33,972 bases of DNA from Bacteroidales bacterium (GTDB taxonomy: Bacteria > Bacteroidota > Bacteroidia > Bacteroidales > JAIPAH01), in the NCBI GenBank assembly GCA_021740175.1, contig JAIPAH010000020.1, positions 1 to 33,972 on the forward strand, in the 5' to 3' direction. The translations under genes and the position numbers were made by a program. Under the pieces are notes generated by a model, which searched no databases, was not told where the DNA came from, and saw nothing but the letters and a program-made list of their open reading frames with translations. This document shows positions 14,454 through 33,267 of this stretch, in pieces. Each line of letters starts with the position of its first letter. Position 1 is the stretch's first letter.

Positions 14454-15701
14454 TCATCCCAAAAACATGGCAGCATGAATCGCGATAATGTTGTCAGAGA
14501 AATATTGGGTTTCCGGATCATTGGAGAGAATAAATGCTTTCTTTACCGGTTTGTTTAGTAATTTATCCAAGCCTTTGAGATGCCGGGCATCCTTATTGGA
14601 AATCTTTTCAGTCATCTTAATTTCAAAAGCATAATAATACTCAGGAAACTCTATAAGTAAATCTATTTCCTTCCCGTCATGGGTGTGTAAATGATACAAA
14701 GATCTTTGTTCGCCGATAGTGCGCATTTGTTTGAATAGTTCAGATACAATTAAACTTTCAAATTCATAGCCTGTTAATCCCCCTTTTTTCTGGAGTATAG
14801 CTTGTATAATCCCTTGATCGAGAAAATGAATCTTCGGCATTTTTGATAGTCGCTTGTTTAGATTCTGTGCCCAGGCAGGTATTATCACTGATTGGTAACT
14901 CAGCTCAAAGTACCTCAGATAGCGTTGAACCGTTTTTGTTGTAATTCCCAGTTTTCGGCCCATATCAGAAGCATTAATCAGAGTGGCTGTGTTGATGGCT
15001 ACATATCGCTGAAGATTGAGAAAAGGTTCCAGGTCTCTGAAGGCTGCCAAATCTCTTATATCACGTTCCAGATAGGTTTTGACATAATTTGTAAGCCAAT
15101 TGAACTTTTCTTCTTCTGAGAGTTCAGGATCTGAAACGGCCGGATACGATCCAAAATGCATCAAATGTTCCCAGGCTTTCTGTTTCTCTGTCATATGGTT
15201 GTCCAAATGAAAGGTAGGTAAATATTCAGTAGTATTCCTGCTCAACAGTTCCTTTTGAAAAAGTGAATCTTCGATAGGATCATCCCACGACTCGGTCTTT
15301 AATTCAGGTAATGTCAAAGGGTAGACTTCCAGAAGATTGCTTCTTCCTGCCAGGCTTTCCCGTACCTTTTCCATTAACAGTAGCTGGCTTGAACCAAGCA
15401 ATATGTAGCGGGGCATTTCGAATTGATCGTACACTGATTTTATGCTCTCGATGAGCTCGGGTTCTTTTTGTATTTCATCCAGAACAGCAAATGGATATAG
15501 TTTCGACCATTGCTGAGCCGTAAGTTTACGGTAATTACTTCTCATTACAGGATCTTCAATGGAGATATACTGGTAATCAGGAAAGAGTCTGCGTATTAAG
15601 GTGGTTTTTCCTGTTTGCCTGGCACCAGTCAATACAATTATTCTTCCCGTCTTTAAAGAATTGATTCTTCTTATCTGTGCGGAAATTCGCCGATTTTTCA
15701 T
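14454..15701 (-). CDS. AAA_14/DUF4143-type ATP-binding protein
   Basis: IIVLTGARQTGKTTLIRRLFPDY, AVLDEIQKEPELIESIKSVYD, YILLGSSQLLLMEKVRESLAGRSNLLEVYPLTLPEL, C-terminal LHTHDGKEIDLLIEFPEYYYAFEIKMTEK. Confidence 0.93.
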   Translation of the reverse strand: MKNRRISAQIRRINSLKTGRIIVLTGARQTGKTTLIRRLFPDYQYISIEDPVMRSNYRKLTAQQWSKLYPFAVLDEIQKEPELIESIKSVYDQFEMPRYILLGSSQLLLMEKVRESLAGRSNLLEVYPLTLPELKTESWDDPIEDSLFQKELLSRNTTEYLPTFHLDNHMTEKQKAWEHLMHFGSYPAVSDPELSEEEKFNWLTNYVKTYLERDIRDLAAFRDLEPFLNLQRYVAINTATLINASDMGRKLGITTKTVQRYLRYFELSYQSVIIPAWAQNLNKRLSKMPKIHFLDQGIIQAILQKKGGLTGYEFESLIVSELFKQMRTIGEQRSLYHLHTHDGKEIDLLIEFPEYYYAFEIKMTEKISNKDARHLKGLDKLLNKPVKKAFILSNDPETQYFSDNIIAIHAAMFLG

Positions 15702-16099
15702 AGGTCATAGTTTTACTAGTAACTCCTAATATGTCTTTAGACAAAGGTACAGAATATTAGTTATAAATCGTATATTTCTTCCAATATATACGCTATTTTA
15801 TGGCTTTAAATACCATAACTTACGCTTAAAAACAGATTTATTGATTGAGATAATATAGCCATAATCCTCCTTAATGCATCCCATATAAGAAACTAAGAGG
15901 CCGTCCAGAAAGAAAAAAGTTTCCGCTGAAGCAATTTGATACCCACCCATATAAACTAAAACTTAATGATATTGGGCAGCTTTCCCGGTTATTCGACAAA
16001 AAAAATTAAAGGGCAAAAGTTGTTGGATATTCTCGCTGACGGTTTGAACGGCCCCATGACATTATTCTACAAAAAAATACTAAATAATTTCATTTTGAT

Positions 16100-16395
16100 A
16101 AAAAAATCTTATATTAGACCCATCGATGAAAAAGAGCCGATCCCCGGTTTGTTTTTACCGTGTAACAAACCGGCCCTGGAGAGAATACGAATAAATATTC
16201 ATCGATATTTCCAAAATTTCCAACGAGGAGTAGCACAAGGCGAAAAAAATGACAAAAACCGCGGCAATGCGGAACGAAATTGATATGTCAAATATACGAA
16301 AAATACTAATAATTATTAAGAAATATTTAACAAAATATGTTAGATAAAACTTGACTTTGTTTTTTTGAATTAGTATTGCAAGTACAGAAGAAAAT
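16100..16395 (+). repeat. Promoter cassette repeat, copy A
   Basis: tatattagaccca...ccggtttgtttttaccgtgtaacaaaccgg...caacgaggagtagcacaaggcgaaaaaaatgacaaaaaccgc...cttgactttgtttttttgaattagtattgcaagtacagaagaaaat; same sequence at 18119 and 20577. Confidence 0.92.
16351..16379 (+). promoter_or_regulatory. Putative Bacteroidota-type promoter in cassette A (TTGACTTTG ... TAGTATTGC)
   Basis: TTGAC at 16351, TAGTATTGC at 16371, close to the TTTG/TANNTTTG consensus; spacer has a T7 run. Confidence 0.55.
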
Positions 16396-16445: not shown

Positions 16446-17039
16446 ATGCGAATTACAACAACTTTTGCTTCAATAATAATCTTAATTTTCAGTTTGGTTT
16501 TTATTAGCTGTGAAAAATAAAATTCTAATGATAAGCTCAATTCTGAAAATCAAAATGAAGAAAATACAATTCATCAAAGATCTAATAGAATTGATGAATT
16601 AATGAGTTACTATTATCAACAGGCACAAAAAAATACAAGTAGAGGTCCATTTGAGGATATATGGAACTGGATGGTGTCCCATGCAGGTGTGCATGGTGAC
16701 CGTTCATACGATCTGCCTTGTGGTCCTTGTCCTGGAATATGTATTGGTATCAGATTTACTCCAGTGGATGATGATTATCTTTTAACCCAGGAAGAATATG
16801 AAAATGGTAAAAGGCTATTGGAAATTGGATTTTTTAATGATTCAACTTTGGGTGTAAATTTTAAACATAAAGGGTTTGTAGAAAATGATACGTTATTTGT
16901 AGACCAAGACTATAATATTGGTGATGAGGCATCTGAATTATACAATAAAGACTCAATAATTATTGAAAAAGGTGCTTATCCTGTAACGTACTCTCAAAGT
17001 AAAAATGGTAGCACGATTGTGGATATAAAAAGTTATTAA
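16446..17039 (+). pseudogene. Small lipoprotein interrupted by an in-frame TAA (16518-16520); the ORF track keeps only 16602-17039
   Basis: MRITTTFASIIILIFSLVFISCEK*NSNDKLNSENQNEENTIHQRSNRIDELMSYYYQQAQKN...; lipobox ISC, stop and remaining 145+ codons are all in one frame. Confidence 0.65.
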
Positions 17040-18080: not shown

Positions 18081-18118
18081 CCTTCCGCTAAAAAAACCAG
18101 CAAAAAAATTTCATTTTC

Positions 18119-18416
18119 ATTAAAATAATTTTATATTAGACCCATTGATGAAACGTGAGGCCGACCCCCCGGTTTGTTTTTACCGTATAACAAACCGGCC
18201 CTGGAGAGAGAAGACGAATAAATATTTCATCGATAAATCCATAGATTTCCAACGAGGAGTAGCACAAGGAAAAAAAATGACAAAAACCGCAGAAATGCGG
18301 GGCGAAATTGATATGTCAAATATACGAAGAATACTAATAATTATTAAGAAATATTTAACAAAATATGTTAGATAAAACTTGACTTTGTTTTTTTTTGAAT
18401 TAGTATTGCAAATACA
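18119..18416 (+). repeat. Promoter cassette repeat, copy B
   Basis: Strongly similar to copies A and C, including hairpin ccggtttgtt/aacaaaccgg (18169-18178 / 18189-18198) and promoter TTGAC-TAGTATTGC (18379-18409, T9 spacer run). Confidence 0.92.
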
Positions 18417-18653
18417 GAAGAAATAAAAATGAAAGGAGGTAATGGCAGTCTTCAGCTAATTATGATTGAGTTTTTATGAATGAAGCAAATTAATTCATAA
18501 AAGGGTGAACCCGGCATCTTATCCCAGGGCTGCTAACCGGGCGGTAAACCGGTTTAAGAGAAAAAAGCACATTACAATGAGCAAAAAGAATTTTGTGGAA
18601 TTTTCCGCTCACGTAATGTGCCTTAATTGTAAAACGTTACAAATATAAGTATT
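18417..18653 (+). promoter_or_regulatory. Long structured 5' leader of peptide gene 1 with two abutting tiny ORFs
   Basis: MKGGNGSLQLIMIEFL* (18429-18479) abuts MKQINS* (18480-18500); stem gcacattac/gtaatgtgc (18567-18575 / 18613-18621); near-identical block at 20868-21103. Confidence 0.65.
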
Positions 18654-18893
18654 ATGAAACGAAAAATCATTGCATTTTTTATAGGAACAGCCTTTTTTAT
18701 TGGGGCTATTGGACTCGGTATTACATCAGAATCTGAACCCGACATGATAATCCAAAACTCCAAGGCTCTTGCAGAGAGTGATCCGGGACAGGATGATTTT
18801 ACCCTGTGTGCAGGTGAAGAATGGTACTGTGATGAGTATTCTGATGGTACACCTATTTATGGTATTAATGTCTTTTGGCAATTAGTGTTCTAA
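18654..18893 (+). CDS. NVEALA-like small secreted peptide precursor 1
   Basis: MKRKIIAFFIGTAFFIGAIGLGITSESEPDMIIQNSKALA|ESDPGQDDFTLCAGEEWYCDEYSDGTPIYGINVFWQLVF; hydrophobic leader, NSKALA motif, paired with a paralogue at 21104. Confidence 0.85.
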   Translation: MKRKIIAFFIGTAFFIGAIGLGITSESEPDMIIQNSKALAESDPGQDDFTLCAGEEWYCDEYSDGTPIYGINVFWQLVF

Positions 18894-19087
18894 ACTAATA
18901 GTAATTATATAGGGCATTCATCCTAAATGTTATATTTTTTTTAGCTAAATTATTTCTTACTATTTATTTTAATCTAAATAGTCAGAAAAAAACCTTTTAA
19001 ATTTTGAGCATTATAGGTATGGATGTCCTATATATTTATTTTAGGAAGATATTAATTATATTAAAAACAATACTAAAAAGTAAGATT

Positions 19088-20161
19088 ATGAAAATTAAAA
19101 TTCTGAAAAATATTCCAATAATAATATTCATAGTACTTATAAGTAATCTTCATATAAGTTGTACAAAAAATAATGAAGAAAAATCACCTTTGAAAGCTTT
19201 TCGTGATTCTACACTTATTCAGGGGAATCAATTAAAAATTAGCAGTGAACATATTGGTGAAGCCACATATTCTCTATTAATAGATTCAATACTAGTCATT
19301 AAAGATACAAAAAATACAGATTATGCATTCCATTTAATCAATATCAATAAGAAAAAGTATACAAAATCATTTGGTAAGAAAGGCAATGGACCGAAAGAAT
19401 TAGCTCATCCTATGGGTTTAAATAAGAATATTCAATCAGAGAATATAAATACTTATGCATCAACAAAAAACAAAATTTTTACTTATAATGTTGACTCCTT
19501 GCTGCAAAAAAATGATTATAAACCCTATTATATAAAAAAATTCATGGGCGAGTTTTTAATGCCAGTGCAAATACAAAATGGGCTATTTATAACTACCGGT
19601 CCTTTTGAAAAGGGTAGATATCGATTAACAGAAAGTGCACAGAACTTGAACAAATTTATATTTGATTATCCTGTTGATTCTGAACATGAAGAGGCCCCCA
19701 ATGAGTCTAAAAGTATGGTTTATCAGGGGAGATTTAAATTACAACCTGAAGGGAAACGTTTTGCTTTCGCAACAAATAGAGCAGGGATTTTGGAAATTTT
19801 TCAAGCTAATAACGGCACAATATCTAAGGTTATAGACCAGCATTTTTACAATCCCGACTACAAAGTTCAATCAAAGTATTCTGTTCCTATTTACCCCAAT
19901 AATAAAATGGGCTTTACAGACATGAGTGCCACAAAAGATTATTTGTATGTCCTTTATTCAGGGAGGACGATTTTAAAGTATAGGAAAAAATTCTTATACG
20001 GAAAACATGTTTTGGTATTCAATTGGCAGGGAACCCCAATAAAACACTATAAGTTGGATAAAGCTGTGCGATGTATTAGTGTGAACAAAACTAACAGCCT
20101 GCTTTATGCCTGGGCAGCCTTGCCCGAGCCGGCCTTACTGGAATATGCTTTTAACCATTAG
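19088..20161 (+). CDS. BF3164-like 6-bladed beta-propeller (TolB-like) lipoprotein 1
   Basis: MKIKILKNIPIIIFIVLISNLHISCTKN lipobox; KSFGKKGNGPKELAHPMGLN motif; paralogue of 21436-22515; ATG at 19088 preferred over 19004. Confidence 0.8.
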   Translation: MKIKILKNIPIIIFIVLISNLHISCTKNNEEKSPLKAFRDSTLIQGNQLKISSEHIGEATYSLLIDSILVIKDTKNTDYAFHLININKKKYTKSFGKKGNGPKELAHPMGLNKNIQSENINTYASTKNKIFTYNVDSLLQKNDYKPYYIKKFMGEFLMPVQIQNGLFITTGPFEKGRYRLTESAQNLNKFIFDYPVDSEHEEAPNESKSMVYQGRFKLQPEGKRFAFATNRAGILEIFQANNGTISKVIDQHFYNPDYKVQSKYSVPIYPNNKMGFTDMSATKDYLYVLYSGRTILKYRKKFLYGKHVLVFNWQGTPIKHYKLDKAVRCISVNKTNSLLYAWAALPEPALLEYAFNH

Positions 20162-20177
20162 CAGATCTAAAAAAATC

Positions 20178-20435
20178 ATGATAAAGAAAACAGCCATGCA
20201 TGTTAAACTCACAGTGGTCATTGTCTTCATCTTATTAGTAGCCGGATATGTGTGTAATAACTCATCGCAAAGGAGCCAGGCTATACAGAAAAAAGTGAAG
20301 CAATACCATGACAAAAAAATATTGCTCCCGTTTTCTGATAGCGTGTTATATAATAATGCAGTTGTATCATTTGGAAATAACCCACGAAACCAGAAGATTT
20401 ACCTAAGTAAAACCAAAAACACATCGCATGCTTGA
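20178..20435 (+). pseudogene. Truncated thioredoxin-like lipoprotein (paralogue of 22536-23132 lacking the Trx domain)
   Basis: N-terminus SSQRSQAIQKKVKQYHDKKILLPFSDSVLYNNA matches the full copy, then continues into sequence homologous to the full copy's downstream intergenic region (RNQKIYLSKTKN); CGSC domain absent. Confidence 0.8.
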
Positions 20436-20576
20436 ATCTGTAGCTAAAGATATAAAACCAACATCCAAAAGGAAGCCGCCCAAAAACCATCAGGGATGGA
20501 TATTTAGCAACAATTTTTTTAGACGACCCCGTAACCTTTTTCCGCTAAAAAACCAACAAAGAATTTGTTTTTCATT

Positions 20577-20867
20577 AAAATTATTTTATATTAGACCCAT
20601 TGATGAAACGTGAGGCCGACCCCCGGTTTGTTTTTACCGTGTAACAAACCGGCCCTGGAGAGAATACGAATAAATATTCATCGATTTTCCAAAATTTCCA
20701 ACGAGGAGTAGCACAAGGCGAAAAAAATGACAAAAACCGCGGCAATGCGGAACGAAACGGTATTGTCAAACATATAAAAATAACTAATAAATTTTAAGTA
20801 ATTTTTAACAAAAAATTTTAGGTAAAACTTGACTTCTTTTTTTTTTGAATTAGTATTGCAAGTACAG
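20577..20867 (+). repeat. Promoter cassette repeat, copy C
   Basis: Same cassette: hairpin ccggtttgtt/aacaaaccgg (20624-20633 / 20643-20652), promoter TTGAC-TAGTATTGC (20829-20859, T10 spacer run). Confidence 0.92.
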
Positions 20868-21103
20868 AAGAAAATAAATATGAAAGGAGGTAATGGCAGT
20901 CTTCAGCTAATTATGATTGAGTTTTTATGAATGAAGCAAAGTAATTCATAAAAAGGTGAACCCGGCATCTTATCCCAGGGCTGCTAACCGGGCGGTAAAC
21001 CGGTTTAAGAGAAAAAAGCACATTACAATGAGCAAAAAGAATTTTGTGGAATTTTCCGTTCACGTAATGTGCCTTAATGTAAAACCTAACAAATATAAGT
21101 ATT
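20868..21103 (+). promoter_or_regulatory. Long structured 5' leader of peptide gene 2
   Basis: MKGGNGSLQLIMIEFL* (20880-20930) abuts MKQSNS* (20931-20951); stem gcacattac/gtaatgtgc (21018-21026 / 21064-21072). Confidence 0.65.
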
Positions 21104-21358
21104 ATGAAACGAAAAATAATTGCATTTTTTATAGGAACGGCCTTTTTTATAGGGGCTATTGGGTTTGGAATCACATCAGAATCAGAGTCAAAGCTTTTAA
21201 TTAATAACTCAGAGGCTTTAGCGGAAGACAATCACGAAAATGATGAAAAAATATGTATGGAAATGAATGATACGTATTGTGAATATGCTGATGGTACTCC
21301 AAGCGAGGGACCCGTTGGTTGGAGAGATTTAGATAGTCCTACGATAGGAGATATGTAA
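21104..21358 (+). CDS. NVEALA-like small secreted peptide precursor 2
   Basis: MKRKIIAFFIGTAFFIGAIGFGITSESESKLLINNSEALA|EDNHENDEKICMEMNDTYCEYADGTPSEGPVGWRDLDSPTIGDM. Confidence 0.88.
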   Translation: MKRKIIAFFIGTAFFIGAIGFGITSESESKLLINNSEALAEDNHENDEKICMEMNDTYCEYADGTPSEGPVGWRDLDSPTIGDM

Positions 21359-21367
21359 ATATATAAT

Positions 21368-21400
21368 AGAAGGATAGATTACCAATCTATCCTTCTTCTT
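21368..21400 (+). terminator. Perfect 13-bp hairpin between peptide gene 2 and propeller gene (terminator/attenuator-like)
   Basis: agaaggatagatt-acc-aatctatccttct followed by tctt. Confidence 0.7.
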
Positions 21401-21435
21401 ACCAATCATTACAATTAAATAAAATAGTGTTATAT

Positions 21436-22515
21436 ATGAACAATACATTTCTAATAGGTTTATTATACCTGATAAGCGGGTGTGTGTTACTTTTTATAAA
21501 CACCTCTTGCGAGAGAGAGGTGAAGGAAACTGATCCCATTAATTCATTCAATGATTCTACCATAATTAAGGGTCGAAAAATGAATATTGATAATAATGCC
21601 ATAGGAGAAGCTATTTCGTCATTTTTAATTGATTCTATATTGATACTAAAAGACCTTAAAAATCCGAAATATAATTTTCATCTAATAAATATCAGACAAG
21701 AATCTTACATCAAAAAATTTTGTATTAAAGGAAAAGGCCCAAATGAGTTTGCATTTCTCATGAATTTAAATTCTAATCCAAAAAAGCATCGGTCCTTTAA
21801 TACATTTTCTAGATTGGATAAAAAAATAATAACTTTTGATTTAGATTCATTAATGTTTCAAAAAAGATATAGACCTGATATAATTAAGACGTTCAAAAAA
21901 AACTATATAATGCCTGTAATGTTACAAAATGATTATTTTATTTCCACAGGTCCGTTTAAAAAAGGAAGATATCGTTTAAGCGATAATTCTTTGCATACTC
22001 ATAGATATAAATATCATTATCCTTACGATCCAGAAAAAAATGATGTTTCCCGGACTACAAAAAGTATAATTTATCAGGGACAATTTATATTGCAACCAAA
22101 TGGGAGTCATTTTGCATTTAGTACCCCTAATTGTGGTATACTAGAAGTCTTTAAAGCAAAAGAAAATTCAATACGTATAGTAACTAAACATCATCATTTT
22201 AATGCTAAATATGAAACAAACAAAACAGGAACTAAGGCTGGATTGGTTATGGAAAATAAGATGGGTTTCTCTGACATGGGTTCGTCAAAAAATTATCTAT
22301 ATGTTCTATATTCGGGTAGACTCTTAAGTAAGTATACTGATGAATCATTATATGGTAAGCATATCCTTGTTTTTAATTGGGAAGGCGAACCCATAAAACA
22401 CTATAAACTGGACAAAGCGGTGCGGTGTATTAGTGTGAACAATACAGACAGTCTGCTTTATGCCTGGGCTGCATTGCCTGAGCCGGCTTTGCTGGAGTAT
22501 TCATTAAATCATTAA
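21436..22515 (+). CDS. BF3164-like 6-bladed beta-propeller (TolB-like) lipoprotein 2
   Basis: MNNTFLIGLLYLISGCVLLFINTSCERE; KKFCIKGKGPNEFAFLMNLN; C-terminus HYKLDKAVRCISVNNTDSLLYAWAALPEPALLEYSLNH nearly identical to copy 1. Confidence 0.82.
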   Translation: MNNTFLIGLLYLISGCVLLFINTSCEREVKETDPINSFNDSTIIKGRKMNIDNNAIGEAISSFLIDSILILKDLKNPKYNFHLINIRQESYIKKFCIKGKGPNEFAFLMNLNSNPKKHRSFNTFSRLDKKIITFDLDSLMFQKRYRPDIIKTFKKNYIMPVMLQNDYFISTGPFKKGRYRLSDNSLHTHRYKYHYPYDPEKNDVSRTTKSIIYQGQFILQPNGSHFAFSTPNCGILEVFKAKENSIRIVTKHHHFNAKYETNKTGTKAGLVMENKMGFSDMGSSKNYLYVLYSGRLLSKYTDESLYGKHILVFNWEGEPIKHYKLDKAVRCISVNNTDSLLYAWAALPEPALLEYSLNH

Positions 22516-22535
22516 CTTAAGTAAAATGTTTGTTT

Positions 22536-23132
22536 ATGATAAGAAAATCAGCTATGTATAATAAAAATACATTAGCATTAACAATTATTTTCATTTTATT
22601 GATTATTGGTTATGGATGTAAAAACACATCGCAAAGGAGCCAGGCTATACAGGAAAAAGTGAAGCAATACCATCACAAAAAAATATTGCTCCCGTTTTCT
22701 GATAGCGTATTATATAATAATGCAATGATTCCAGTGGGTCAAACGAATCTAAAAAAAGGCGCTATTAAAGTGAGCACTTATATCGACGGGCAGTGTGGCT
22801 CATGCCTGAAAACGTTAACCAACTGGAAACCTTTGATAAGCCTTGCCAAAAAGCACCATGATTTTCAAATTCTTTTTTACGTATATGCCTTTAGCCGGGA
22901 TGAATTTATTCAATATTACTATCCCGAATCGATTCATGAATACCCGGTTATGTTTGATACTCAGAAAAAGTATTTAAAACGAAATGAATTATCGGAATAT
23001 GAAGACTACAAAACGTTTTTATTAAACGGTGATAATGAAGTTACACTGGTCGGAAATCCTGCACGCAGCGAAAAGCTTATGGCGTTGTACGAGCAGGAAA
23101 TTATTAAGCGGCTGAATGCTGCTGACCAATGA
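22536..23132 (+). CDS. Thioredoxin-like lipoprotein
   Basis: Lipobox-like IIGYGCKN; STYIDGQCGSCLKTLTNWKPLISLAKKHHDFQILFYVYA with CGSC (CxxC) in Trx-like context; start MIRKSAMYNK uncertain by a few codons. Confidence 0.78.
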   Translation: MIRKSAMYNKNTLALTIIFILLIIGYGCKNTSQRSQAIQEKVKQYHHKKILLPFSDSVLYNNAMIPVGQTNLKKGAIKVSTYIDGQCGSCLKTLTNWKPLISLAKKHHDFQILFYVYAFSRDEFIQYYYPESIHEYPVMFDTQKKYLKRNELSEYEDYKTFLLNGDNEVTLVGNPARSEKLMALYEQEIIKRLNAADQ

Positions 23133-23202
23133 TCCGGTTGAAAGATTTGGAAATAAGCAGCGAAACAAATATATTTATTTAAGTAAAACCAAAACAAATC
23201 CC

Positions 23203-24324
23203 ATGCTTGAAACATTACTATTTCCTTGGAAATCTCCTATAACGCATAAAACATTCGTGTTGCTTTTTATTCCTTTTCTTTTCCTGGTCTCGTGCCGGTC
23301 GGGAGATGAAAATAGGCAAGAGCAGGCCAACAGGCAGGGTATGGAAGAGAAAAACAAGGTGGATACCCTGGTGCTTCGGGAAAAGACATTTTCCAGGGAA
23401 TTAACCGGTAATGGCAAGCTTGCTGCGGTGCAAAAAGCGAAACTTCGTTTTGGCGTGTCGGGTGAACTAAAAAAGATAGGGGTCCAAAACGGGCAGCAAG
23501 TACAGGAAGGACAAATGCTAGCCAAACTGAAAGACTTTTCTTACCGAAATGCGTTAAAAGAAGCACGTACCCGGTTAAATAAAGCAAAGGTGAGTTTACA
23601 AGATGTGCTGATAGGACAGGGTTATAACCCGGAAGATACCGCGTCTGTCCCGGATAATTTTATGGAAATAGCGAAAATAAAATCCGGGGTGGAAGATGCC
23701 CGGACGAAACTTGCCAAGGCTCGTCATCAATTAAAAATGACTTCCCTTTCGGCTCCTTTCCCAGGGGTAGTTGCCAATATTGAAAAAAAAGAATTTGATA
23801 AAATTGACGCCTCTGAAAATTTTTGTTTGCTTATTAATAACAACCGGTATCATGTGGTTTTTAAAGTACTTGAGTCGGAGCTTGATGAACTGGCACTCCA
23901 TAAAACCTTTATGGCCAAAACCATGACAGGAGACAGCTACAAGGGCAGGATTACTCATATTAATCCTGTGGTTGACGAAAACGGGCTAGTTACGGTGCGG
24001 GGACTGATAGATAATAAGAGAGGGCAACTCGTTGAAGGAATGAATGTAAAAGTAACCGTCAGAACAAAAATCCCCGGGAAACTGATTATCCCAAAAAGGG
24101 CATTGGTATTGAGACAAAACAAAGAAGTAGTCTTTACCCTGAAACACGATAGTATTGCTATATGGAATTATGTAACCACAGGAGAGGAAAACAGTAAATA
24201 TTATACTATCAAAGAAGGCCTTGATAGGGGGGATACGGTGATTGTTTCAAATAATATAAACCTGGCTCATGAATCGATTGTTGAAGTAGAATCGCCGCAA
24301 CAGCCAAAACAAACGACAAGGTAA
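23203..24324 (+). CDS. Efflux RND transporter periplasmic adaptor subunit (lipoprotein)
   Basis: MLETLLFPWKSPITHKTFVLLFIPFLFLVSCRSGDEN lipobox; GELKKIGVQNGQQVQEGQMLAKL and LSAPFPGVVANIEKKEFDKIDASENFCLLI lipoyl halves; ORF-track start 23116 is too early. Confidence 0.92.
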   Translation: MLETLLFPWKSPITHKTFVLLFIPFLFLVSCRSGDENRQEQANRQGMEEKNKVDTLVLREKTFSRELTGNGKLAAVQKAKLRFGVSGELKKIGVQNGQQVQEGQMLAKLKDFSYRNALKEARTRLNKAKVSLQDVLIGQGYNPEDTASVPDNFMEIAKIKSGVEDARTKLAKARHQLKMTSLSAPFPGVVANIEKKEFDKIDASENFCLLINNNRYHVVFKVLESELDELALHKTFMAKTMTGDSYKGRITHINPVVDENGLVTVRGLIDNKRGQLVEGMNVKVTVRTKIPGKLIIPKRALVLRQNKEVVFTLKHDSIAIWNYVTTGEENSKYYTIKEGLDRGDTVIVSNNINLAHESIVEVESPQQPKQTTR

Positions 24325-24328
24325 CCTT

Positions 24329-27300
24329 ATGGTGAAGTTCCTGGTAGCACGCCCAATAGCAGTTTCGATGACCTTTCTTGCTTTCATTATCATGGGAAGT
24401 TTTGCTATGACACGTCTTCCGGTATCGCTGATGCCGGATGTGGCGATTCCGGAAATGACGGTGAAAATCGATGGCAAGGATATGCCCGTCAGGCAGTTGC
24501 AGAATGGCGTGGTCAGGCCTCTACGAAGACAGTTGATGCAAACGCCTCATTTGAAATCTCTCAAAAGTGAAGCACGGGATGAAAGTGCCGTATTTCACCT
24601 GGAGTTTGAGTATGGCACCAATGTGGATCTGGCTTTTATCGATGTCAACGAAAAGATTGACCGGGCCATGAATTTTCTGCCCGATGATTTACCCCGGCCA
24701 AGGGTCATAAAAGCCAGAGCCTCTGACATCCCGGTTTTTTATTTGAATATAACTGCGAAAGAGGCGTATTTGAATGCTCAATCATCAAAGACACGAGAGG
24801 TTTCCAGTCGTTTTGTTGAGCTGAGTAATTTTGCTGAAAGGGTCATAAGAAAGCGATTGGAGCAGCTCCCGGAAGTAGCTATTGCTGATGTTAGCGGAAC
24901 AGTAAATACGGAAATTGCTATTATCCCGGACAAGCAAAAGCTGCGATCACTCAATATGCATTATTCTGATATTGAAACAGCCATACATGCTAATAATTTA
25001 AAGCTGGGGACAATAGTTGTGAAAGATGGGATCTATCAATACAACTTACGGTTTGATAAAACACTGAATAGCAAAGAAGATATTGAAAAAATTACCCTGA
25101 AAGCAGGAAATAAAACATTGGAGCTGCAGGAAATAGCTAATGTAAAGGTGCGCCCGGCAAAGCGCAGCGGGCTTGTAACTTCACAAGGTCAGGAAGCCGT
25201 TTCATTAGCTGTTATCAAAAAATCCGGTGCCCGCATGGAAGATATGCAGCAATCTTTGAATACCCTTATCAAAAATTTTCATGCGAAATACCCTAATCTG
25301 CAATTCCAGGTGATACGTGACCAAACAAAACTATTGGATTATTCTATCCACAATCTTGGAAACACTTTGTTGTTAGGGGCAATTCTTGCTTTTGTCATCA
25401 TGTTCTTGTTTTTACGCGATATACGCACCCCCCTGTTAATTGGTATCAGTATTCCTGCTTCGCTGATCATAAGTATTTTGCTCTTCCACGTATTCGGCAT
25501 ATCGGTCAATATTATTTCACTCTCCGGGCTGGTACTTGGACTGGGGATGATGATTGACAATTCGATCATTGTTATAGACAACATCACACAGTATATAGAC
25601 CGGGGGCATTCGCTTGTTGATGCATGCATTCAAGCCACCAATGAGGTTATTCGCCCTTTGTTGAGTTCAGTGCTTACTACCTGTGCCGTATTCATACCGC
25701 TTATCTTTATCAGCGGACTGGCAGGGGCCTTGTTCTATGATCAAGCCATGGCAGTGGCTATCGGGTTGTTTATTTCTTTCTTTGTATCCATTACCCTGGT
25801 GCCGGTTTATTACAAGCTGGTGTTCAGAAAAGACCGGGAAAAACGAATTTGGTTGGGGAAACAGGTTAAGGGGTGGAATTACTATTCATCTTACGAGAAA
25901 GGATTGAATAACGTATTGCGTCACCGGAGCGTTATGACGGGAATATTCTTATTGATTGTGGTAGGCGGCCTATTCTTTTATCGGGCTATTGACAAAGAAA
26001 AGATTCCTCAAATCAAACATAATGAGATGTTTGTTTCATTGCAATGGAATGATAAAATCAATGTTGCGGAAAATAAACGGCGCTCGCTCATGTTGCTTAA
26101 ACAAATCGATACCCTTATTGAGCAAACCTCCGTTTATGCAGGCTCGCAACAGTATTTGATGAATTTGAATAATATCAACGCGCCGAATGCTTCTAAGATA
26201 TATATCAAATTTCAGGACAGTAAAAGCGTCAAAGTAGCCAGACAAAATATCAGAACGTTTTTTAGGAAAAATTACCCGGAGGCGCATTTCGATTTCTTAC
26301 CCCCCGAAAATGTTTTCGAACTATTGTTTTCTGAAGATAAGCCGCCCCTTGTAGCCCGCATTATGCCTTACGAAAAGGAGCAAGGGCTGGATTACTCGCA
26401 GGTTAATGCGTTGCTGCATCAAACAGATAACCGGTTTGATGCTTTTAATTTTTCCGCTGTCCCCGCCCGCGAACATATAGAAATAGCTCTGGATGCGGAG
26501 CGTTTGAAGATATATGATATTAAGCGAGAGCAGGTCATAAACAAACTGAGAACTTTGTTTAATGAATACCAGGTGTCCGATATCAAAAACAGCCGGCATT
26601 TTATGCCAATTGTACTGGCTCATAGCCAGGAACCCATGTTTAATTTGATAAATCAGGCAAAAATAAAAAACGAGAATAAGCAATACATTCCCTTGAAGGA
26701 AGTGTTAGCAATCCGTTATTCAAAAGATTTTAAGACAATAACTTCCGGAGAAAACGGAGAATATTATCCCTTAGTGTTTCATGTTGAAAAAGAGAAAGTA
26801 TCGGATGTTCAGAGAAAAATCGAAAATTTCCTGGCTCGTAAAGCGTATGATGTCACCTGGCATGGCAGTATTTTTTCCACTCAGCAAATGGTTGAAGAAA
26901 TATTGATCATTCTGCTCATATCTTTGTTGCTTCTGTATTTTATTCTTGCCTCCCAATTCGAATCGCTGAGTCTACCTTTTATCGTTCTCCTGGAAGTACC
27001 TATGGATATAGCCGGCGCGCTTTTTTTATTGTGGTTGATGGGCGAAACCTTAAATATCATGTCCTTAATCGGGATTATCGTAATGGCGGGTATAATTATT
27101 AATGATTCGATATTGAAGATCGACACAATCAACAGGTTGCGGTATAAGGGATACACTTTAACTGAATCGCTTTTTATAGGGGGAAAAAGACGGCTTAAAC
27201 CCATATTGATGACCAGCCTGACGACGATTATGGCCATGCTTCCCTTTTTATTTATATCAGGAATGGGTTCTGATCTGCAAAGGCCATTGGCAGTTGCTGT

Positions 27301-27397
27301 CATAGGAGGTATGGCAATTGGTACATTTGTTAGCCTTTACTTTATTCCATTATTTTACTATTTGCTTAAGCGTCCCACTCAAAAATCTTTACACTAA
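24329..27397 (+). CDS. Efflux RND transporter permease subunit (AcrB/MdtB-like)
   Basis: 1022 aa; MVKFLVARPIAVSMTFLAFIIMGSFAMTRLPVSLMPDVAIPEMTV; LVLGLGMMIDNSIIVIDNI; GIIVMAGIIINDSILKIDTINRLR. Confidence 0.95.
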   Translation: MVKFLVARPIAVSMTFLAFIIMGSFAMTRLPVSLMPDVAIPEMTVKIDGKDMPVRQLQNGVVRPLRRQLMQTPHLKSLKSEARDESAVFHLEFEYGTNVDLAFIDVNEKIDRAMNFLPDDLPRPRVIKARASDIPVFYLNITAKEAYLNAQSSKTREVSSRFVELSNFAERVIRKRLEQLPEVAIADVSGTVNTEIAIIPDKQKLRSLNMHYSDIETAIHANNLKLGTIVVKDGIYQYNLRFDKTLNSKEDIEKITLKAGNKTLELQEIANVKVRPAKRSGLVTSQGQEAVSLAVIKKSGARMEDMQQSLNTLIKNFHAKYPNLQFQVIRDQTKLLDYSIHNLGNTLLLGAILAFVIMFLFLRDIRTPLLIGISIPASLIISILLFHVFGISVNIISLSGLVLGLGMMIDNSIIVIDNITQYIDRGHSLVDACIQATNEVIRPLLSSVLTTCAVFIPLIFISGLAGALFYDQAMAVAIGLFISFFVSITLVPVYYKLVFRKDREKRIWLGKQVKGWNYYSSYEKGLNNVLRHRSVMTGIFLLIVVGGLFFYRAIDKEKIPQIKHNEMFVSLQWNDKINVAENKRRSLMLLKQIDTLIEQTSVYAGSQQYLMNLNNINAPNASKIYIKFQDSKSVKVARQNIRTFFRKNYPEAHFDFLPPENVFELLFSEDKPPLVARIMPYEKEQGLDYSQVNALLHQTDNRFDAFNFSAVPAREHIEIALDAERLKIYDIKREQVINKLRTLFNEYQVSDIKNSRHFMPIVLAHSQEPMFNLINQAKIKNENKQYIPLKEVLAIRYSKDFKTITSGENGEYYPLVFHVEKEKVSDVQRKIENFLARKAYDVTWHGSIFSTQQMVEEILIILLISLLLLYFILASQFESLSLPFIVLLEVPMDIAGALFLLWLMGETLNIMSLIGIIVMAGIIINDSILKIDTINRLRYKGYTLTESLFIGGKRRLKPILMTSLTTIMAMLPFLFISGMGSDLQRPLAVAVIGGMAIGTFVSLYFIPLFYYLLKRPTQKSLH

Positions 27398-27398
27398 C

Positions 27399-28463
27399 AT
27401 GAAGCTATGGGTATACATAAAACGATGGGTTAAATGGCCCCTTTTTTTCTTAGTCGTTTTTCTTTTGGCTATTCTTTGCCGGATTTTTCTTTTCGGCATT
27501 TATACCATTCCATCCGGTTCTATGAAAAACACTCTTCTCCCGGGCGATATGATTTTTGTAAACAAAATAATATATGGCCCTGCCATTCCCAAGTCTTTAC
27601 ATGATGTTCCGTGGCTGAAAGTATTTGCGAAAAGTCCCCGTAATGTATCAAATAATGATGTTACAAAACTTGAAGGATTTAAGAAGATAAGTCGTAACGA
27701 TGTGGTAGTTTTTAAACCACCGGGGAAAAAACAAGTATATGTAAAACGATGTGTGGGGTTGCCTGGAGATCGAATAAAGCTTGAGGGGGACAATTTGTTG
27801 ATTAATAATAGATTAATAACATCTTCCGGGAATATTTTTTATGAATACTTAATCTATTTTAATCAAAAGGTAAAAATGCAAAAATTTGTCAAAAATGAGC
27901 ATCAAGGAATTGTTCGGATATCAGATTCAATAGGTTATGCAAGTGTTTCAAAGGATGTAAAAACACAATTGATGCGTAAAAGCGCTGTAGATTCTGTAAA
28001 ATTAAAAACACAATCACTGAAAAAACAAGGCTATAATAATTTGTATGAAATAGATGCTTTTAAATCACAGAAAAACGAGCGCTCTCAATTTGTGGCTTAC
28101 GGCAGGAAGAATAATTGGAATACTTTTGATTTCGGACCTTTGTATATACCTGCAGAAGGAGAAACAATTAGCCTGAACCTTGATAATGTTGAGTTTTACC
28201 GTAAGATTATTGAGCAATACGGGAATCATTCACTACGAATAGAGAACGGCGAGATTTATATTGACAATAAGAAAAGCTCCATTTATGAATTTAAGCAAAA
28301 TTACTATTTTATGTTAGGCGATAACAGACATCGTTCAAAGGATAGCCGAACATGGGGTTTTGTTCCTGAAAATCGTATAATAGGCAAGGTAGTGATGATA
28401 TTATATTCCTGCAATAAGGGCAAAATGAATTGGGAAAGGACGTTGAAAAGCATTAATAAGTAA
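27399..28463 (+). CDS. Signal peptidase I (S26 family)
   Basis: N-terminal TM; IPSGSMKNTLLPGDMIFVNKIIYG (catalytic Ser region), RNDVVVFKPPGKKQVYVKRCVGLPGDRI (catalytic Lys region), YFMLGDNRHRSKDSRTWGFVPENRIIGK. Confidence 0.93.
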   Translation: MKLWVYIKRWVKWPLFFLVVFLLAILCRIFLFGIYTIPSGSMKNTLLPGDMIFVNKIIYGPAIPKSLHDVPWLKVFAKSPRNVSNNDVTKLEGFKKISRNDVVVFKPPGKKQVYVKRCVGLPGDRIKLEGDNLLINNRLITSSGNIFYEYLIYFNQKVKMQKFVKNEHQGIVRISDSIGYASVSKDVKTQLMRKSAVDSVKLKTQSLKKQGYNNLYEIDAFKSQKNERSQFVAYGRKNNWNTFDFGPLYIPAEGETISLNLDNVEFYRKIIEQYGNHSLRIENGEIYIDNKKSSIYEFKQNYYFMLGDNRHRSKDSRTWGFVPENRIIGKVVMILYSCNKGKMNWERTLKSINK

Positions 28464-28516
28464 GTGAAAGATATTGTTTGGTAACAATGGGAAGAATAAA
28501 ACGGAATGATTGATAA

Positions 28517-31500
28517 ATGAGTGAAAGCGTGGATAAATATAATGATGATAAGACCAAAAAAGGACCTTTGTCGGCATTTTCGATAATCATGGTTTTCATT
28601 CTTTTATCGGTAGTAGGTATTGGCTTAATACCACGTCTTAACATTAGTTTGGTTCCTTCGCGTTCCCTGCCTTCCGTTACGGTGAATTTTAATTGGCCGA
28701 ATGCTTCGGCCCGTATTATTGAATCACGCGTTACAGGGAAATTGGAGGGTCTTTTCAGTCGAATGAAAGGAATTGAAAATATCGAATCCAAAACCATGCA
28801 TTCCAAGGCCTCCATAACGGTTTCTTTTGAAGAAAATATCAATATGGATGCCGCTCGTTTTCAAATCGCTTCCTATATTCGCCAGGCCTATCCCAAACTT
28901 CCCAAAGAAGTATCTTATCCTGTTTTATCGGTTAATAACCCTGATGATGAAGACCGGAAATTACTCTCCTATGCTATCTATGGTTCGGCACCAAGTCATT
29001 ACATCAAAAAATTTACCCAGGACAACATTAAGTCTCAGATTACAAAAATCAAAGGTATACATGAGGTTCGTGTATATGGAGCTACACCCTATGAATGGTT
29101 TATCACCTACGATCCCACAAAAATTCAAAAGCTGAATATTAGCCCACAAGATATTCAAAAGGCCATAAAAGAATGGTTCACTACCCAAAATATTGCTTAT
29201 GTATCGGTTAAACAGGAGAGGCAATTCAAACAAAAATATCGTTTACGGCTAAAAACAGGGCTAAAAACCAGGAAAGCATGGCATGATATTCCCGTAAAGA
29301 AACATAAATCGCGCATCATCTACCTGGAGGATATTGCCGGAGTAAAATTTAAAAAAAGTGCTCCTTCTTCCTATCATCGGATTAATGGCCAGAATACCGT
29401 TAATATGGTTGTCACTCCCGAAAGTCGTGTCAATATGTTGAAATTGGCTGACCAGGTCAAAACGCAAATCGCTTCTTTGCAAAAGACCCTTCCTCCGGGG
29501 TATTCGATTAGGAAAATGTATGATGCCACATCTTATATTAATAAAGAAATCAGGAAAGTAGGCATTCGTGCTATTATTGCTGTTGTGGTTCTGCTGCTTT
29601 TTGTCTTGCTTATCAGCCGTCAGCTAAAATACTTATTGCTCATTACCATAACGCTCGTAACAAATCTCGCTATCGCCGTTATTTTTTACTATGCTACCCG
29701 CCTGGAAATTCATATTTATTCCCTTGCCGGAATGACCATATCACTGGGCATCATTATCGATAATAGCATCATTATGACTGATCATTTAAGACATCATGCT
29801 AATAAAAAAGCTTTCCTTTCGATATTGGCGGCCACTTTAACAACTATCGGGGCTTTAAGTCTGATTTTCTTTCTCAACCAAAATCAACAACTCAAGCTGA
29901 TAGATTTCAGTCTTATTATAATAATTAATCTGGGGGTGTCCCTTTTTATCGCCTTGTTTTTTATTCCTTCGTTACTCGAAAAAATCGATATCCGGCCTCG
30001 ACGCACTCCCCGGTTTATTAAAAGGCAACGTCGTATTATAAAATTTTCGCATATCTATTATTCCTGGATAAGGTTGCAACTCAAATATAAATGGATTTTT
30101 GTCTTGTTGTTAGTTCTGGCTTTCGGTACGCCTGTTTATATGCTACCAGGAAAAATCGACAACAACACATGGGGGGCACAGGTGTATAATAGCACGTTGG
30201 GTAGTGAGTGGTATAAAGTTCATCTTAAGAAATGGGTGAACACCTATTTGGGAGGTTCCTTGAGGCTATTTACACAAGAGGTGTATGAGGCATCGTTTTA
30301 TAGTCAACCCGAGCGGACTAAATTGTTCGTGACAGGGAAAATGCCCGAAGGGTCAACCATAGAACAGGTGAACGCAACATTTAAAAAAATGGAGGATTAT
30401 TTGAGCAGATTTGATGAGATTGATATGTATACTACCGATATCCGAAACTATCGAAATGCCAGGATATCCATTTATTTTAAAGAAAAATATGAAAAACAAT
30501 TCTTTCCATTTATACTTAAAGGAAAGCTCATTACCAAAGCCAATAACCTGGGTGGAATGGATTGGACGGTTTATGGAGTAGGTAAGGCGTTTAATAATGC
30601 GGTAAATACAAATTACAAAGATTCGCGAATTTATGTTTATGGATACAATTACGAACAGTTATACCGGTATGCCGAAAAACTAAAATCCGAACTTAACAAA
30701 AACAACCGTGTCAGAGACCTGGCAATACGCGGGGAGAGTTCATGGCGAGCTCCTCCTCTCAGACATAAAATTCTGGTTAGGTTAGATGAAATGTCTATGA
30801 GTAATCTTAATTTTTCATCGGCTGAAGTTTATTCGGTTCTAAAACAAAAAACCATGCAGCCCGCGCCTTTTGGAAAATTATACATAAACAATCAGCTGCA
30901 AACGGTTAATATCCAGTCGAGTAATTCTGATTTTGATACATGGCAATTGAAGCATTCACCTTTAATCAAAGATGAGCGGATGCTAAAGCTCTCAAATGCA
31001 GGTAAAATAGAAAAAGTTTCAACAGGGAATAATATTTTTAAGAAGAACCAGGAATATCGGTTAGCTGTTGAATTTAATTTTGCAGGTCCGGCCGCATTGA
31101 AATCTAAGGTAGTGGATAATCACGTCGATAAAATGAATAACTCGCTTCCGCTTGGTTATCATGCCCAGCCTCCCCATCATTTAATGTTTTCACAAGGAAA
31201 AAGTTCAAATAAGATTTGGATCCTTGCCGGAATTCTTTCTATTATTTTCTTTATATGCGCGATTCTTTTCGAATCATTGAAAAAGCCTTTCGTTATTTTA
31301 TCTCTCGTACCGATGTCCTTTGTCGGGGCATTCCTTACCTTCTATTTTTTTGATATCAATTTTGACCAGGGCGGATATGCTTCGTTTATTCTTCTAGCCG
31401 GAATTACTGTAAACTCTTCTTTGTATATCATCAATGAGTTTAATAATCAACCGGCACGCAAGAACAATGTAGAACTTTATCTAAAGGCTTTTCATTATAA

Positions 31501-31684
31501 GATAATTCCTGTTCTGCTAACCATTACTTCGACCATATTGGGATTGATACCCTTTCTGTTAGGCGGGCAGAATGAAGTTTTTTGGTTTGCTTTTGCGGCC
31601 GGTTCAATAGGAGGATTAATTTTCTCCCTTTTAGGAGTGTTCATATTTCTACCGGTATTTTTACTAAAGAAAAGACACCAATAA
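28517..31684 (+). CDS. Second efflux RND transporter permease subunit
   Basis: 1055 aa; LNISLVPSRSLPSVTVNFNWPNASARIIESRVTGKLEGLFSRMKGIENIES; MTISLGIIIDNSIIMTDHLRHH; ILLAGITVNSSLYIINEFN. Confidence 0.93.
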   Translation: MSESVDKYNDDKTKKGPLSAFSIIMVFILLSVVGIGLIPRLNISLVPSRSLPSVTVNFNWPNASARIIESRVTGKLEGLFSRMKGIENIESKTMHSKASITVSFEENINMDAARFQIASYIRQAYPKLPKEVSYPVLSVNNPDDEDRKLLSYAIYGSAPSHYIKKFTQDNIKSQITKIKGIHEVRVYGATPYEWFITYDPTKIQKLNISPQDIQKAIKEWFTTQNIAYVSVKQERQFKQKYRLRLKTGLKTRKAWHDIPVKKHKSRIIYLEDIAGVKFKKSAPSSYHRINGQNTVNMVVTPESRVNMLKLADQVKTQIASLQKTLPPGYSIRKMYDATSYINKEIRKVGIRAIIAVVVLLLFVLLISRQLKYLLLITITLVTNLAIAVIFYYATRLEIHIYSLAGMTISLGIIIDNSIIMTDHLRHHANKKAFLSILAATLTTIGALSLIFFLNQNQQLKLIDFSLIIIINLGVSLFIALFFIPSLLEKIDIRPRRTPRFIKRQRRIIKFSHIYYSWIRLQLKYKWIFVLLLVLAFGTPVYMLPGKIDNNTWGAQVYNSTLGSEWYKVHLKKWVNTYLGGSLRLFTQEVYEASFYSQPERTKLFVTGKMPEGSTIEQVNATFKKMEDYLSRFDEIDMYTTDIRNYRNARISIYFKEKYEKQFFPFILKGKLITKANNLGGMDWTVYGVGKAFNNAVNTNYKDSRIYVYGYNYEQLYRYAEKLKSELNKNNRVRDLAIRGESSWRAPPLRHKILVRLDEMSMSNLNFSSAEVYSVLKQKTMQPAPFGKLYINNQLQTVNIQSSNSDFDTWQLKHSPLIKDERMLKLSNAGKIEKVSTGNNIFKKNQEYRLAVEFNFAGPAALKSKVVDNHVDKMNNSLPLGYHAQPPHHLMFSQGKSSNKIWILAGILSIIFFICAILFESLKKPFVILSLVPMSFVGAFLTFYFFDINFDQGGYASFILLAGITVNSSLYIINEFNNQPARKNNVELYLKAFHYKIIPVLLTITSTILGLIPFLLGGQNEVFWFAFAAGSIGGLIFSLLGVFIFLPVFLLKKRHQ

Positions 31685-31686
31685 GT

Positions 31687-33267
31687 ATGAAACGATTATA
31701 TTTACAATTGAAAAATCACGGGTTGTATTGCACGATGCTTCAAAAGCAAACGTTATTCATGAAATCGAAGATAAGGTTATCAGTTATGAGGAAAATCTCC
31801 GTTTTAATTTTTGCCTTGGTGCTTTCTGCTCAAGGAATATCCCAGGAAGAAACGCGCTACCTTACTCTGGAGGATGCCATCGCCATAGCCAAGGAAGAAT
31901 CGCCTGATGCGCTGGCGGCCAAGCATAAGTTCCGGAGCAAGTACTGGGAGTATAACACTTTTAAGGCCACCTATCGCCCCAAGCTGAACCTGGATGCCAC
32001 ACTTCCTAATTTGGAAAAATCTATCCAAAGCATCCGACAGGATGATGGTAGCTACATCTTCGGCTCTTCCGAGTCCGCTTTTTCTTCCACCAATATGGAG
32101 CTATCGCAGAAAATCGGTTTTACCGGGGGCGAAGTATTCCTGCGTTCGGGAATCGAGCGCCTAGACCAGTTTTATGGTGATTCGACGGTTACCTCTTACC
32201 GGACCAACCCTGTTAACATCGGCTTGCAACAACCCTTGTTTGATTTTGTCCCCTACAAATGGGATAAAAAGATTGAACCGCTCAAATACAAGGAAGCTAA
32301 ACAAAGCTACATCGAATCAATGGAGCAGGTGGCCCTGAAGACCACCAACCTGTTTTTTGATGTGCTGTTGGCCCAGATGCAGCATAAAATCAACAAAATC
32401 AACCAGGCCAACAATGATACATTATATGAAATTGCCAAAGGGCGCTACAATATCGGAACCATAGCCGAGAATGAGCTGCTGCAGCTGGAGCTTCAGCTAT
32501 TGAAATCCAATGCAGCCGTGGAAGAGTCGAAGTTGGACCTCGAGAATAAGCTATTTCAACTAAAGTCGTTTTTAAAGTTCCCCGAAGAGACCTCTGTTGA
32601 ACTTGTACCCCCTAAAGAAGTACCCAGGTTTGATGTGGGAGCGCAACAGGCCGTCCGGCAGGCGCGTGATAACCAATCCAAAGCCCTGGCTTTTGAGCGC
32701 CGGCTCATGGAAGCCAACCGGGATGTTAACAAGGCACGGAAGCAAAATCGCTTTAGCGCTGAAATACAAGCCGTATACGGTCTAACGCAGAAAGCATTGG
32801 ATTTTACGGATGCCTACAACGATCCTTCCGATCAACAGCGTTTATCGGTAGGGATTAGCGTGCCAATCATAGACGGGGGCCTGGCCAAAGGAAAAATCCG
32901 GATGGCCGAGTCGAACCGCGAGCTGGTCCGCAGCGAGGTGGAGCAAGACCGCATCGATTTCCGCCAGGAAGTCTACCTCCAGGTCATGCAGTTCAACATG
33001 CAGGACAACCAGCTGCGCATCGCCGCCAAAAGCGATACGGTAGCCCGCAAGCGTTACAACGTCACCAAACAGCGCTACATGATCGGCAAAATCAGCATCA
33101 CCGAACTCAACATCGCCCAGGAAGAAAAAGACAACGCCCAACTGGGTTACATCCGCGCCCTCTACGACTACTGGCGCAATTATTACCAGCTTCGCAAACA
33201 AACCCTCTACAATTTCCGGGATAATCAAGAAATCCAGGTCAATCCCGAGGAGTTGCTGGAGAAGTAG
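31687..33267 (+). CDS. TolC family outer membrane efflux protein
   Basis: LTLEDAIAIAKEESPDALAAKHKFRSKYWEYNTFKATYRPKLNLDATLP; KTTNLFFDVLLAQMQHKINKINQANNDTLYEIAKGRYNIGTIAENELLQLELQLLKS; IGKISITELNIAQEEKDNAQLGYIRALYDYWRNYYQLR. ATG 31786 (MRKISVLIFALVLSAQGISQEE) is an alternative start. Confidence 0.92.
   Translation: MKRLYLQLKNHGLYCTMLQKQTLFMKSKIRLSVMRKISVLIFALVLSAQGISQEETRYLTLEDAIAIAKEESPDALAAKHKFRSKYWEYNTFKATYRPKLNLDATLPNLEKSIQSIRQDDGSYIFGSSESAFSSTNMELSQKIGFTGGEVFLRSGIERLDQFYGDSTVTSYRTNPVNIGLQQPLFDFVPYKWDKKIEPLKYKEAKQSYIESMEQVALKTTNLFFDVLLAQMQHKINKINQANNDTLYEIAKGRYNIGTIAENELLQLELQLLKSNAAVEESKLDLENKLFQLKSFLKFPEETSVELVPPKEVPRFDVGAQQAVRQARDNQSKALAFERRLMEANRDVNKARKQNRFSAEIQAVYGLTQKALDFTDAYNDPSDQQRLSVGISVPIIDGGLAKGKIRMAESNRELVRSEVEQDRIDFRQEVYLQVMQFNMQDNQLRIAAKSDTVARKRYNVTKQRYMIGKISITELNIAQEEKDNAQLGYIRALYDYWRNYYQLRKQTLYNFRDNQEIQVNPEELLEK

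What the first reader, a model, noticed from the sequence alone, without database searches (positions are those of the whole stretch)
27399..28463. Signal peptidase I gene embedded between two RND permease genes
A complete S26 peptidase with Ser and Lys motifs starts 2 nt after the stop of RND 1 and is followed 53 nt later by RND 2. Housekeeping signal peptidase genes are not normally inside efflux operons, so a dedicated substrate is plausible, and the AxA-containing peptides in the same run are the obvious candidates. It also has a long insert (~residues 85-290) between the catalytic Lys region and the GDN motif.
Basis: partly seen in the sequence, partly recalled or inferred. Interest (0 to 1): 0.62.

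Follow-up and report, generated by a model that had tools for sequence, protein, structure and literature searches.

The report
Dedicated signal peptidase for secreted peptides
This gene is a second, specialised copy of the enzyme that trims export signals; it sits in a Bacteroidota operon with small secreted peptides and a double efflux pump, which suggests an undescribed route for maturing and exporting peptides.

Summary
A complete type I signal peptidase (27399-28463, Ser41/Lys116) lies 1 nt after RND1 and 53 nt before RND2. The assembly (about 80% complete) has one other lepB, a dapB-linked housekeeping gene. The long insert is not special, because the housekeeping LepB has it too.

The same module recurs in Flavobacteriaceae and Bacteroidales: small leader peptides, beta-propeller lipoproteins, CxxC thioredoxin-fold lipoproteins, HlyD-RND1-S26-RND2-OEP. 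In Bacteroidales the peptides are NVEALA (PF14055). Most leaders have the AxA site 17-27 residues beyond the hydrophobic core, rarely Q at +1 (3/34), and an even number of core cysteines.

Best reading: the S26 enzyme is dedicated to these peptides, which are oxidised in the periplasm and probably exported by the RND pair. Linkage and phylogeny are shown; cleavage and RND transport are inferred. Exceptions: some S26-linked loci have ordinary short leaders, and one long-leader genome has a single S26. No paper found describes it.

The parts
27399..28463 (+). Type I signal peptidase (S26A, Ser41/Lys116), specialised paralogue
24329..27397 (+). RND1 permease (ACR_tran, 597 bits)
28517..31684 (+). 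RND2 permease, a distinct RND subfamily that recurs with RND1
31687..33267 (+). TolC-like outer-membrane efflux protein (OEP); true start may lie further downstream
23203..24324 (+). HlyD/RND periplasmic adaptor, probable lipoprotein (ORF opens at 23116; ATG at 23203 is the likelier start)
   Evidence: start read from sequence
18654..18893 (+). Leader peptide 1: h-region 5-23, AxA at 38-40 (NSKALA|ESD), 2 Cys in core
21104..21358 (+). Leader peptide 2: same leader, NSEALA|EDN, 2 Cys in core; weak NVEALA PF14055 match (E=0.15, below cut-off)
19088..20161 (+). TolB_like 6-bladed propeller lipoprotein paired with peptide 1
   Evidence: PF15869, 110 bits; start read
21427..22515 (+). TolB_like 6-bladed propeller lipoprotein paired with peptide 2
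   Evidence: PF15869, 110 bits
20178..20435 (+). Truncated copy of the thioredoxin-like lipoprotein of cassette 1; the CxxC domain is missing
22536..23132 (+). Thioredoxin-fold lipoprotein with conserved lipobox Cys28 and CxxC (Cys87-Cys90)
18100..18445 (+). Upstream repeat block of cassette 1 (about 90% identical to that of cassette 2; a third copy at about 16048-16395)
20560..20910 (+). Upstream repeat block of cassette 2

Best explanation
The gene encodes a dedicated type I signal peptidase of a peptide maturation and export system found across Bacteroidota. Small leader peptides are made from cassettes (peptide + propeller lipoprotein + thioredoxin-like lipoprotein) and inserted by Sec through their hydrophobic core. 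The S26 enzyme then cuts at an AxA site that, in most of these leaders and in both window peptides, lies 17-27 residues beyond the hydrophobic core, far from the usual cut site. The released peptide (usually 2, 4 or 6 cysteines) is disulfide-bonded with help from the CxxC lipoprotein and leaves the periplasm through the HlyD-RND1/RND2-OEP pump. Shown here: gene content, recurrence, the single S26 lineage, leader geometry, even cysteine count, CxxC/thioredoxin fold. Inferred: that this S26 rather than LepB cuts, that the RND pair carries the peptide, and the role of the propeller (receptor, immunity or surface display).
For: S26 plus peptides plus propellers recur beside RND1/RND2/HlyD/OEP in Flavobacteriaceae and Bacteroidales. 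S26 lies beside NVEALA cassettes found only through the peptide model (L213, L214, L216, L220, L221, L223). The linked S26 form one side of a branch, 98/95, in 97% of bootstrap trees. Linked genomes carry an extra S26, whereas nine RND1/RND2 genomes without a linked S26 have exactly one. Leader c-region: 34 leaders, median 23 residues; +1 is Q in 3/34 against about 71% of SPase I substrates in the phylum (PMC10653852). Core Cys count is mostly even (28 of 33 with Cys), and the partner lipoprotein has CxxC and a TlpA/ResA-like fold. The catalytic dyad is invariant in the alignment. In the window the S26 is in the same tight operon (gaps 1-53 nt).
Against: Four S26-linked loci (L127, L128, L174, L178) have ordinary short leaders, so long leader and dedicated S26 do not map one to one. 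G108 has a long NVEALA-like leader and one S26 only, and G121's extra S26 is a tandem copy behind lepB. Many RND1/RND2 systems do without S26. Cleavage sites are inferred from AxA, and loci are related by descent. The window peptides fail the PF14055 cut-off. There is no direct evidence that RND moves a peptide.
Confidence: 0.66

Rival explanations
1. S26 is dedicated to the peptides, but the RND1/RND2 pump exports something else (drug, lipid, metal), or the peptides act in the periplasm or outer membrane and are not exported.
For: In several NVEALA loci S26 and the cassettes lie without adjacent RND genes (L214, L216, L220, L223). RND pumps are best known for small molecules (general knowledge).
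Against: Most loci found with RND2 as the query also carry peptide/propeller cassettes, including several in genomes without an extra S26, so the pair tracks the peptides more widely than S26 does.
Confidence: 0.24
2. The S26 gene is a redundant housekeeping signal peptidase captured by chance in an efflux operon; LepB cuts the peptides as well.
For: Extra S26 copies (tandem behind lepB) are common in Bacteroidota. RND1/RND2 systems without S26 evidently manage with LepB. G108 has a long leader with one S26.
Against: One deep lineage confined to these loci in the sampled set; repeated linkage over several families; absent where leaders are short in the genomes of L132-L136 and L138.
Confidence: 0.08
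3. The peptides are bacteriocins and the paired propeller lipoproteins are their immunity proteins; S26 and RND are the processing and secretion apparatus. This is a functional refinement of the best explanation, not an alternative to it.
For: Regular pairing of peptides with divergent propellers; duplicated cassettes with variable cores.
Against: Nothing here shows killing; propellers as receptors for a peptide pheromone, or as surface-display partners, fit equally well.
Confidence: 0.3

Closest known systems
Bacterial signal peptidase I (LepB, MEROPS S26A)
   Same: Ser/Lys dyad, GDN..SxDSR box, N-terminal membrane helix, beta-rich insert; fold search returns E. coli LepB first
   Different: Operon-bound paralogue in a separate lineage from dapB-linked lepB; proposed substrates are a few peptides
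SipW (Bacillus subtilis dedicated signal peptidase for TasA/TapA, PMC4551309)
   Same: A dedicated type I peptidase encoded with its substrates
   Different: SipW is of the ER type with a Ser/His dyad (general knowledge); the window enzyme has Ser/Lys. Substrates and export route differ
NVEALA peptides (Pfam PF14055) with TolB_like propellers (PF15869)
   Same: Leader geometry (long c-region ending in ALA/AxA), cassette order peptide then propeller, linkage to the same S26 lineage in related genomes
   Different: Window peptides score at most 12 bits against a cut-off of 27; Pfam gives no function or machinery
Tripartite RND efflux pumps with two permeases in one operon (MdtABC type)
   Same: HlyD adaptor, two RND permeases, TolC-like channel; both keep the TM4 Asp
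   Different: Operon holds leader peptides, propellers, a thiol lipoprotein and a signal peptidase; peptide cargo proposed
Double-glycine peptide exporters (PCAT/MFP/OMP) of Bacteroidales RiPP clusters (PMC10352776)
   Same: Leader removal plus tripartite export of small peptides
   Different: There an ABC transporter with its own peptidase moves the peptide from the cytosol; here Sec, signal peptidase, then RND from the periplasm

Membership tests
Type I signal peptidase (PF10502 / TIGR02227) | Score above curated cut-off | tested here: met
   147.1 vs 22.9 bits; 144.6 vs 47 bits
Type I signal peptidase (PF10502 / TIGR02227) | Catalytic Ser and Lys, GDN/SxDSR box | tested here: met
   Ser41, Lys116, G307 D308, D315 S316 R317 invariant
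Type I signal peptidase (PF10502 / TIGR02227) | Membrane anchor with periplasmic catalytic fold | tested here: met
   Helix 2-30 then beta fold in the model; Foldseek top hits are E. coli LepB
Type I signal peptidase (PF10502 / TIGR02227) | Signal peptidase activity | not testable with these tools
   Needs an assay
SipW / ER-type signal peptidase | His in place of the catalytic Lys | tested here: not met
   Lys116 present
Ni-SOD maturation protease SodX (TIGR02754) or TraF (TIGR02771) | Score above curated cut-off | tested here: not met
   33.2 vs 63.25 and 23.9 vs 100.25 bits
NVEALA peptide family PF14055 (for the window peptides) | Score above gathering cut-off 27 bits | tested here: not met
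   12.2 bits for peptide 2, none for peptide 1; none in genome
NVEALA peptide family PF14055 (for the window peptides) | Long leader ending in N-x-E/K-A-L-A, peptide followed by a TolB_like propeller | tested here: met
   NSKALA / NSEALA, c-region 17; PF15869 downstream
RND permease (PF00873) | Score above cut-off for both permeases | tested here: met
   597 and 367 vs 28 bits
MdtBC-type heteromeric RND pump | The two permeases assemble in one trimer | not testable with these tools
   Only co-occurrence is known

The most novel reading that the evidence does not exclude
A two-step secretion route for ribosomally made disulfide peptides in Bacteroidota: Sec insertion, release at an unusually distant AxA site by a dedicated signal peptidase, oxidation by a dedicated lipoprotein, and export from the periplasm by a dual-permease RND pump, with a cognate propeller lipoprotein for each peptide. 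It would give the NVEALA family a pathway.
Probability: 0.42. Interest if true: 0.78.

Novelty: new variant of a known kind. Interest (0 to 1): 0.6.

Why it matters
NVEALA-type peptides and TolB_like propellers occur in Bacteroidota, apparently including gut Bacteroides, and I found no paper giving them a function or pathway. A dedicated signal peptidase and a dual RND pump tied to them would make processing, secretion and function directly testable, and would add ribosomal peptides to the proposed cargo of RND pumps. The long c-region leaders also question how far from the membrane helix a type I signal peptidase can cut.

Tried and rejected
The idea that the insert marks a special enzyme was rejected: the housekeeping LepB has it. 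The idea that a dedicated S26 is needed exactly where leaders are long was only partly upheld: a hand tally gave 13 of 14 long-leader genomes against 4 of 11 short-leader genomes with an extra S26 (Fisher p = 0.007; lineages not independent), with exceptions G108, G121, G323, G1141, G1229 and G1266. PF14055 found nothing in the window's genome. Rfam found no credible RNA element in the repeated upstream blocks. OEP signal peptides were tried as a control for the c-region measure, but start codons were too uncertain. Searches for NVEALA and for the B. theta locus tags found no functional paper. An AU test did not finish; the careful tree, in which the linked group is already one side of a branch, made it less pressing.

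Full report
WHAT IS THERE. The ORF at 27399-28463 is a complete type I signal peptidase: 354 aa, PF10502 147 bits, TIGR02227 above cut-off. Alignment to E. coli LepB structures gives Ser41 and Lys116 as the catalytic dyad, and the GDN..SxDSR box is intact. The AlphaFold model (mean pLDDT 82) has one N-terminal helix and a beta fold whose best PDB matches are E. coli LepB. It lies 1 nt after RND1 and 53 nt before RND2. The run is peptide 1, propeller 1, truncated thiol lipoprotein, peptide 2, propeller 2, thiol lipoprotein, HlyD, RND1, S26, RND2, OEP (18654-33267), all on the + strand.

PARALOGUES. The genome (3.43 Mb in 239 contigs, 79.7% complete) holds one other S26 gene, 502 aa, behind dapB, the position that lepB has in nearly all Bacteroidota loci fetched here. 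That housekeeping enzyme also has a long insert between the Lys box and GDN, so the insert is not a mark of the operon copy.

RECURRENCE. A genome scan with the protein gave mostly dapB-linked lepB, but also S26 beside RND genes in Flavivirga aquimarina, Flavobacterium resistens, an uncultured Flavobacteriaceae and a Bacteroidales MAG. Searching with RND2 found further loci. RND1, RND2 and HlyD recur with small leader peptides, propeller lipoproteins (PF15869, DUF4221, DUF5128) and redoxin-like or DUF1573 lipoproteins. S26 is beside them in about 20 loci and absent in others (L131-L139, L176, L177, L179).

LINK TO NVEALA. In Bacteroidales loci L151 and L152 the peptides are bona fide NVEALA (..DLALANVEALA..; over the PF14055 cut-off). 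Independently of RND or S26, PF14055 found 8 of 197 genomes of the order; one of the eight hits (G053) is inside a 568-aa frame and probably spurious. In G105, G164, G074 and G106 an S26 of the same lineage lies beside NVEALA-type peptide and propeller cassettes, sometimes with no RND adjacent. G012 has such S26 genes on other contigs.

PHYLOGENY. In a careful tree of 56 S26 proteins the 24 system-linked ones are one side of a single branch (UFBoot 98, SH-aLRT 95, 97% of bootstrap trees); dapB-linked and tandem copies are on the other side. A 79-row quick tree agrees. The window copy is a long branch within the linked side (37% best identity). The main caveats are the unknown root and unequal composition in a few rows.

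SUBSTRATE EVIDENCE. In 34 leaders the AxA site lies 14-27 residues beyond the hydrophobic core (17 in the window, median 23), against the few residues of textbook signal peptides (general knowledge) and 2-7 in most peptides of RND1/RND2 genomes lacking an extra S26. The residue after the cut is Q in 3 of 34, where about 71% of SPase I substrates in the phylum have Q (PMC10653852). A hand tally gives an extra S26 in 13 of 14 long-leader genomes and 4 of 11 short-leader ones. Exceptions: L127, L128, L174 and L178 are S26-linked with short leaders; G108 has a long leader and one S26. Cut sites are inferred, and the 34 include a few doubtful rows (L135, L176, L211 7664).

REDOX AND TRANSPORT. Cores hold an even number of Cys in 28 of 33 Cys-containing cases. 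The partner lipoprotein keeps a lipobox Cys and CxxC across relatives and models as a thioredoxin fold closest to DsbE/ResA. RND1 and RND2 are two subfamilies; both keep the TM4 Asp, but only RND1 keeps the polar ND in TM10. That they carry the peptide is inferred from co-occurrence.

LITERATURE. No paper in the searched library mentions NVEALA. A B. thetaiotaomicron iron-stimulon table lists BT0662 O-antigen ligase, BT0663 hypothetical, BT0664 6-bladed propeller, BT0667 signal peptidase I and BT0669 RND adaptor, with changes that are not significant (p about 0.1-0.4; PMC10434189). This looks like the same locus type in a model gut organism; I did not read its sequence.

VERDICT. New variant of a known kind (a dedicated SPase plus a tripartite pump), in a combination for which I found no description.

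Noticed in passing
L043, L129, L130, L150, L151, L152, L169, L213, L219, L220: A Wzy_C (O-antigen ligase type) plus TPR membrane protein recurs beside the peptide systems; such proteins include O-oligosaccharyltransferases, so peptide glycosylation is conceivable. None is adjacent in the window.
   Followed up: partly
L149, L150, L151, L152, L171, L172, L173, L213, L214, L216: A 600-700 aa protein with weak transglutaminase-like or F5/8 type C matches recurs in the same neighbourhoods, often next to S26.
   Followed up: partly
window 16048-16395, 18100-18445, 20560-20910: Three copies of a roughly 330-nt block (about 87-90% identical) precede the two peptide cassettes and ORF 16602-17039; no credible Rfam match. 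Points to cassette duplication or shared regulation.
   Followed up: partly
window 20178-20435: The cassette 1 thiol lipoprotein is truncated and joined to sequence resembling the segment ahead of HlyD, as if the cassette was duplicated with a deletion.
   Followed up: no
L131-L139, L176, L179: RND1/RND2 peptide systems without an adjacent S26 mostly have peptides with ordinary signal peptides (short c-region); a natural comparison group.
   Followed up: partly
L180 17781-17978 (G1148:C13:175787-176167): S26-like remnant with an internal stop beside an RND1/RND2 system: apparent loss of the linked S26.
   Followed up: no
window 12866-13990 and 14454-15701: Two ATPase-like proteins with Walker-type GARQTGKTTL/GPRQSGKTTL motifs lie upstream of the peptide cassettes on opposite strands.
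   Followed up: no
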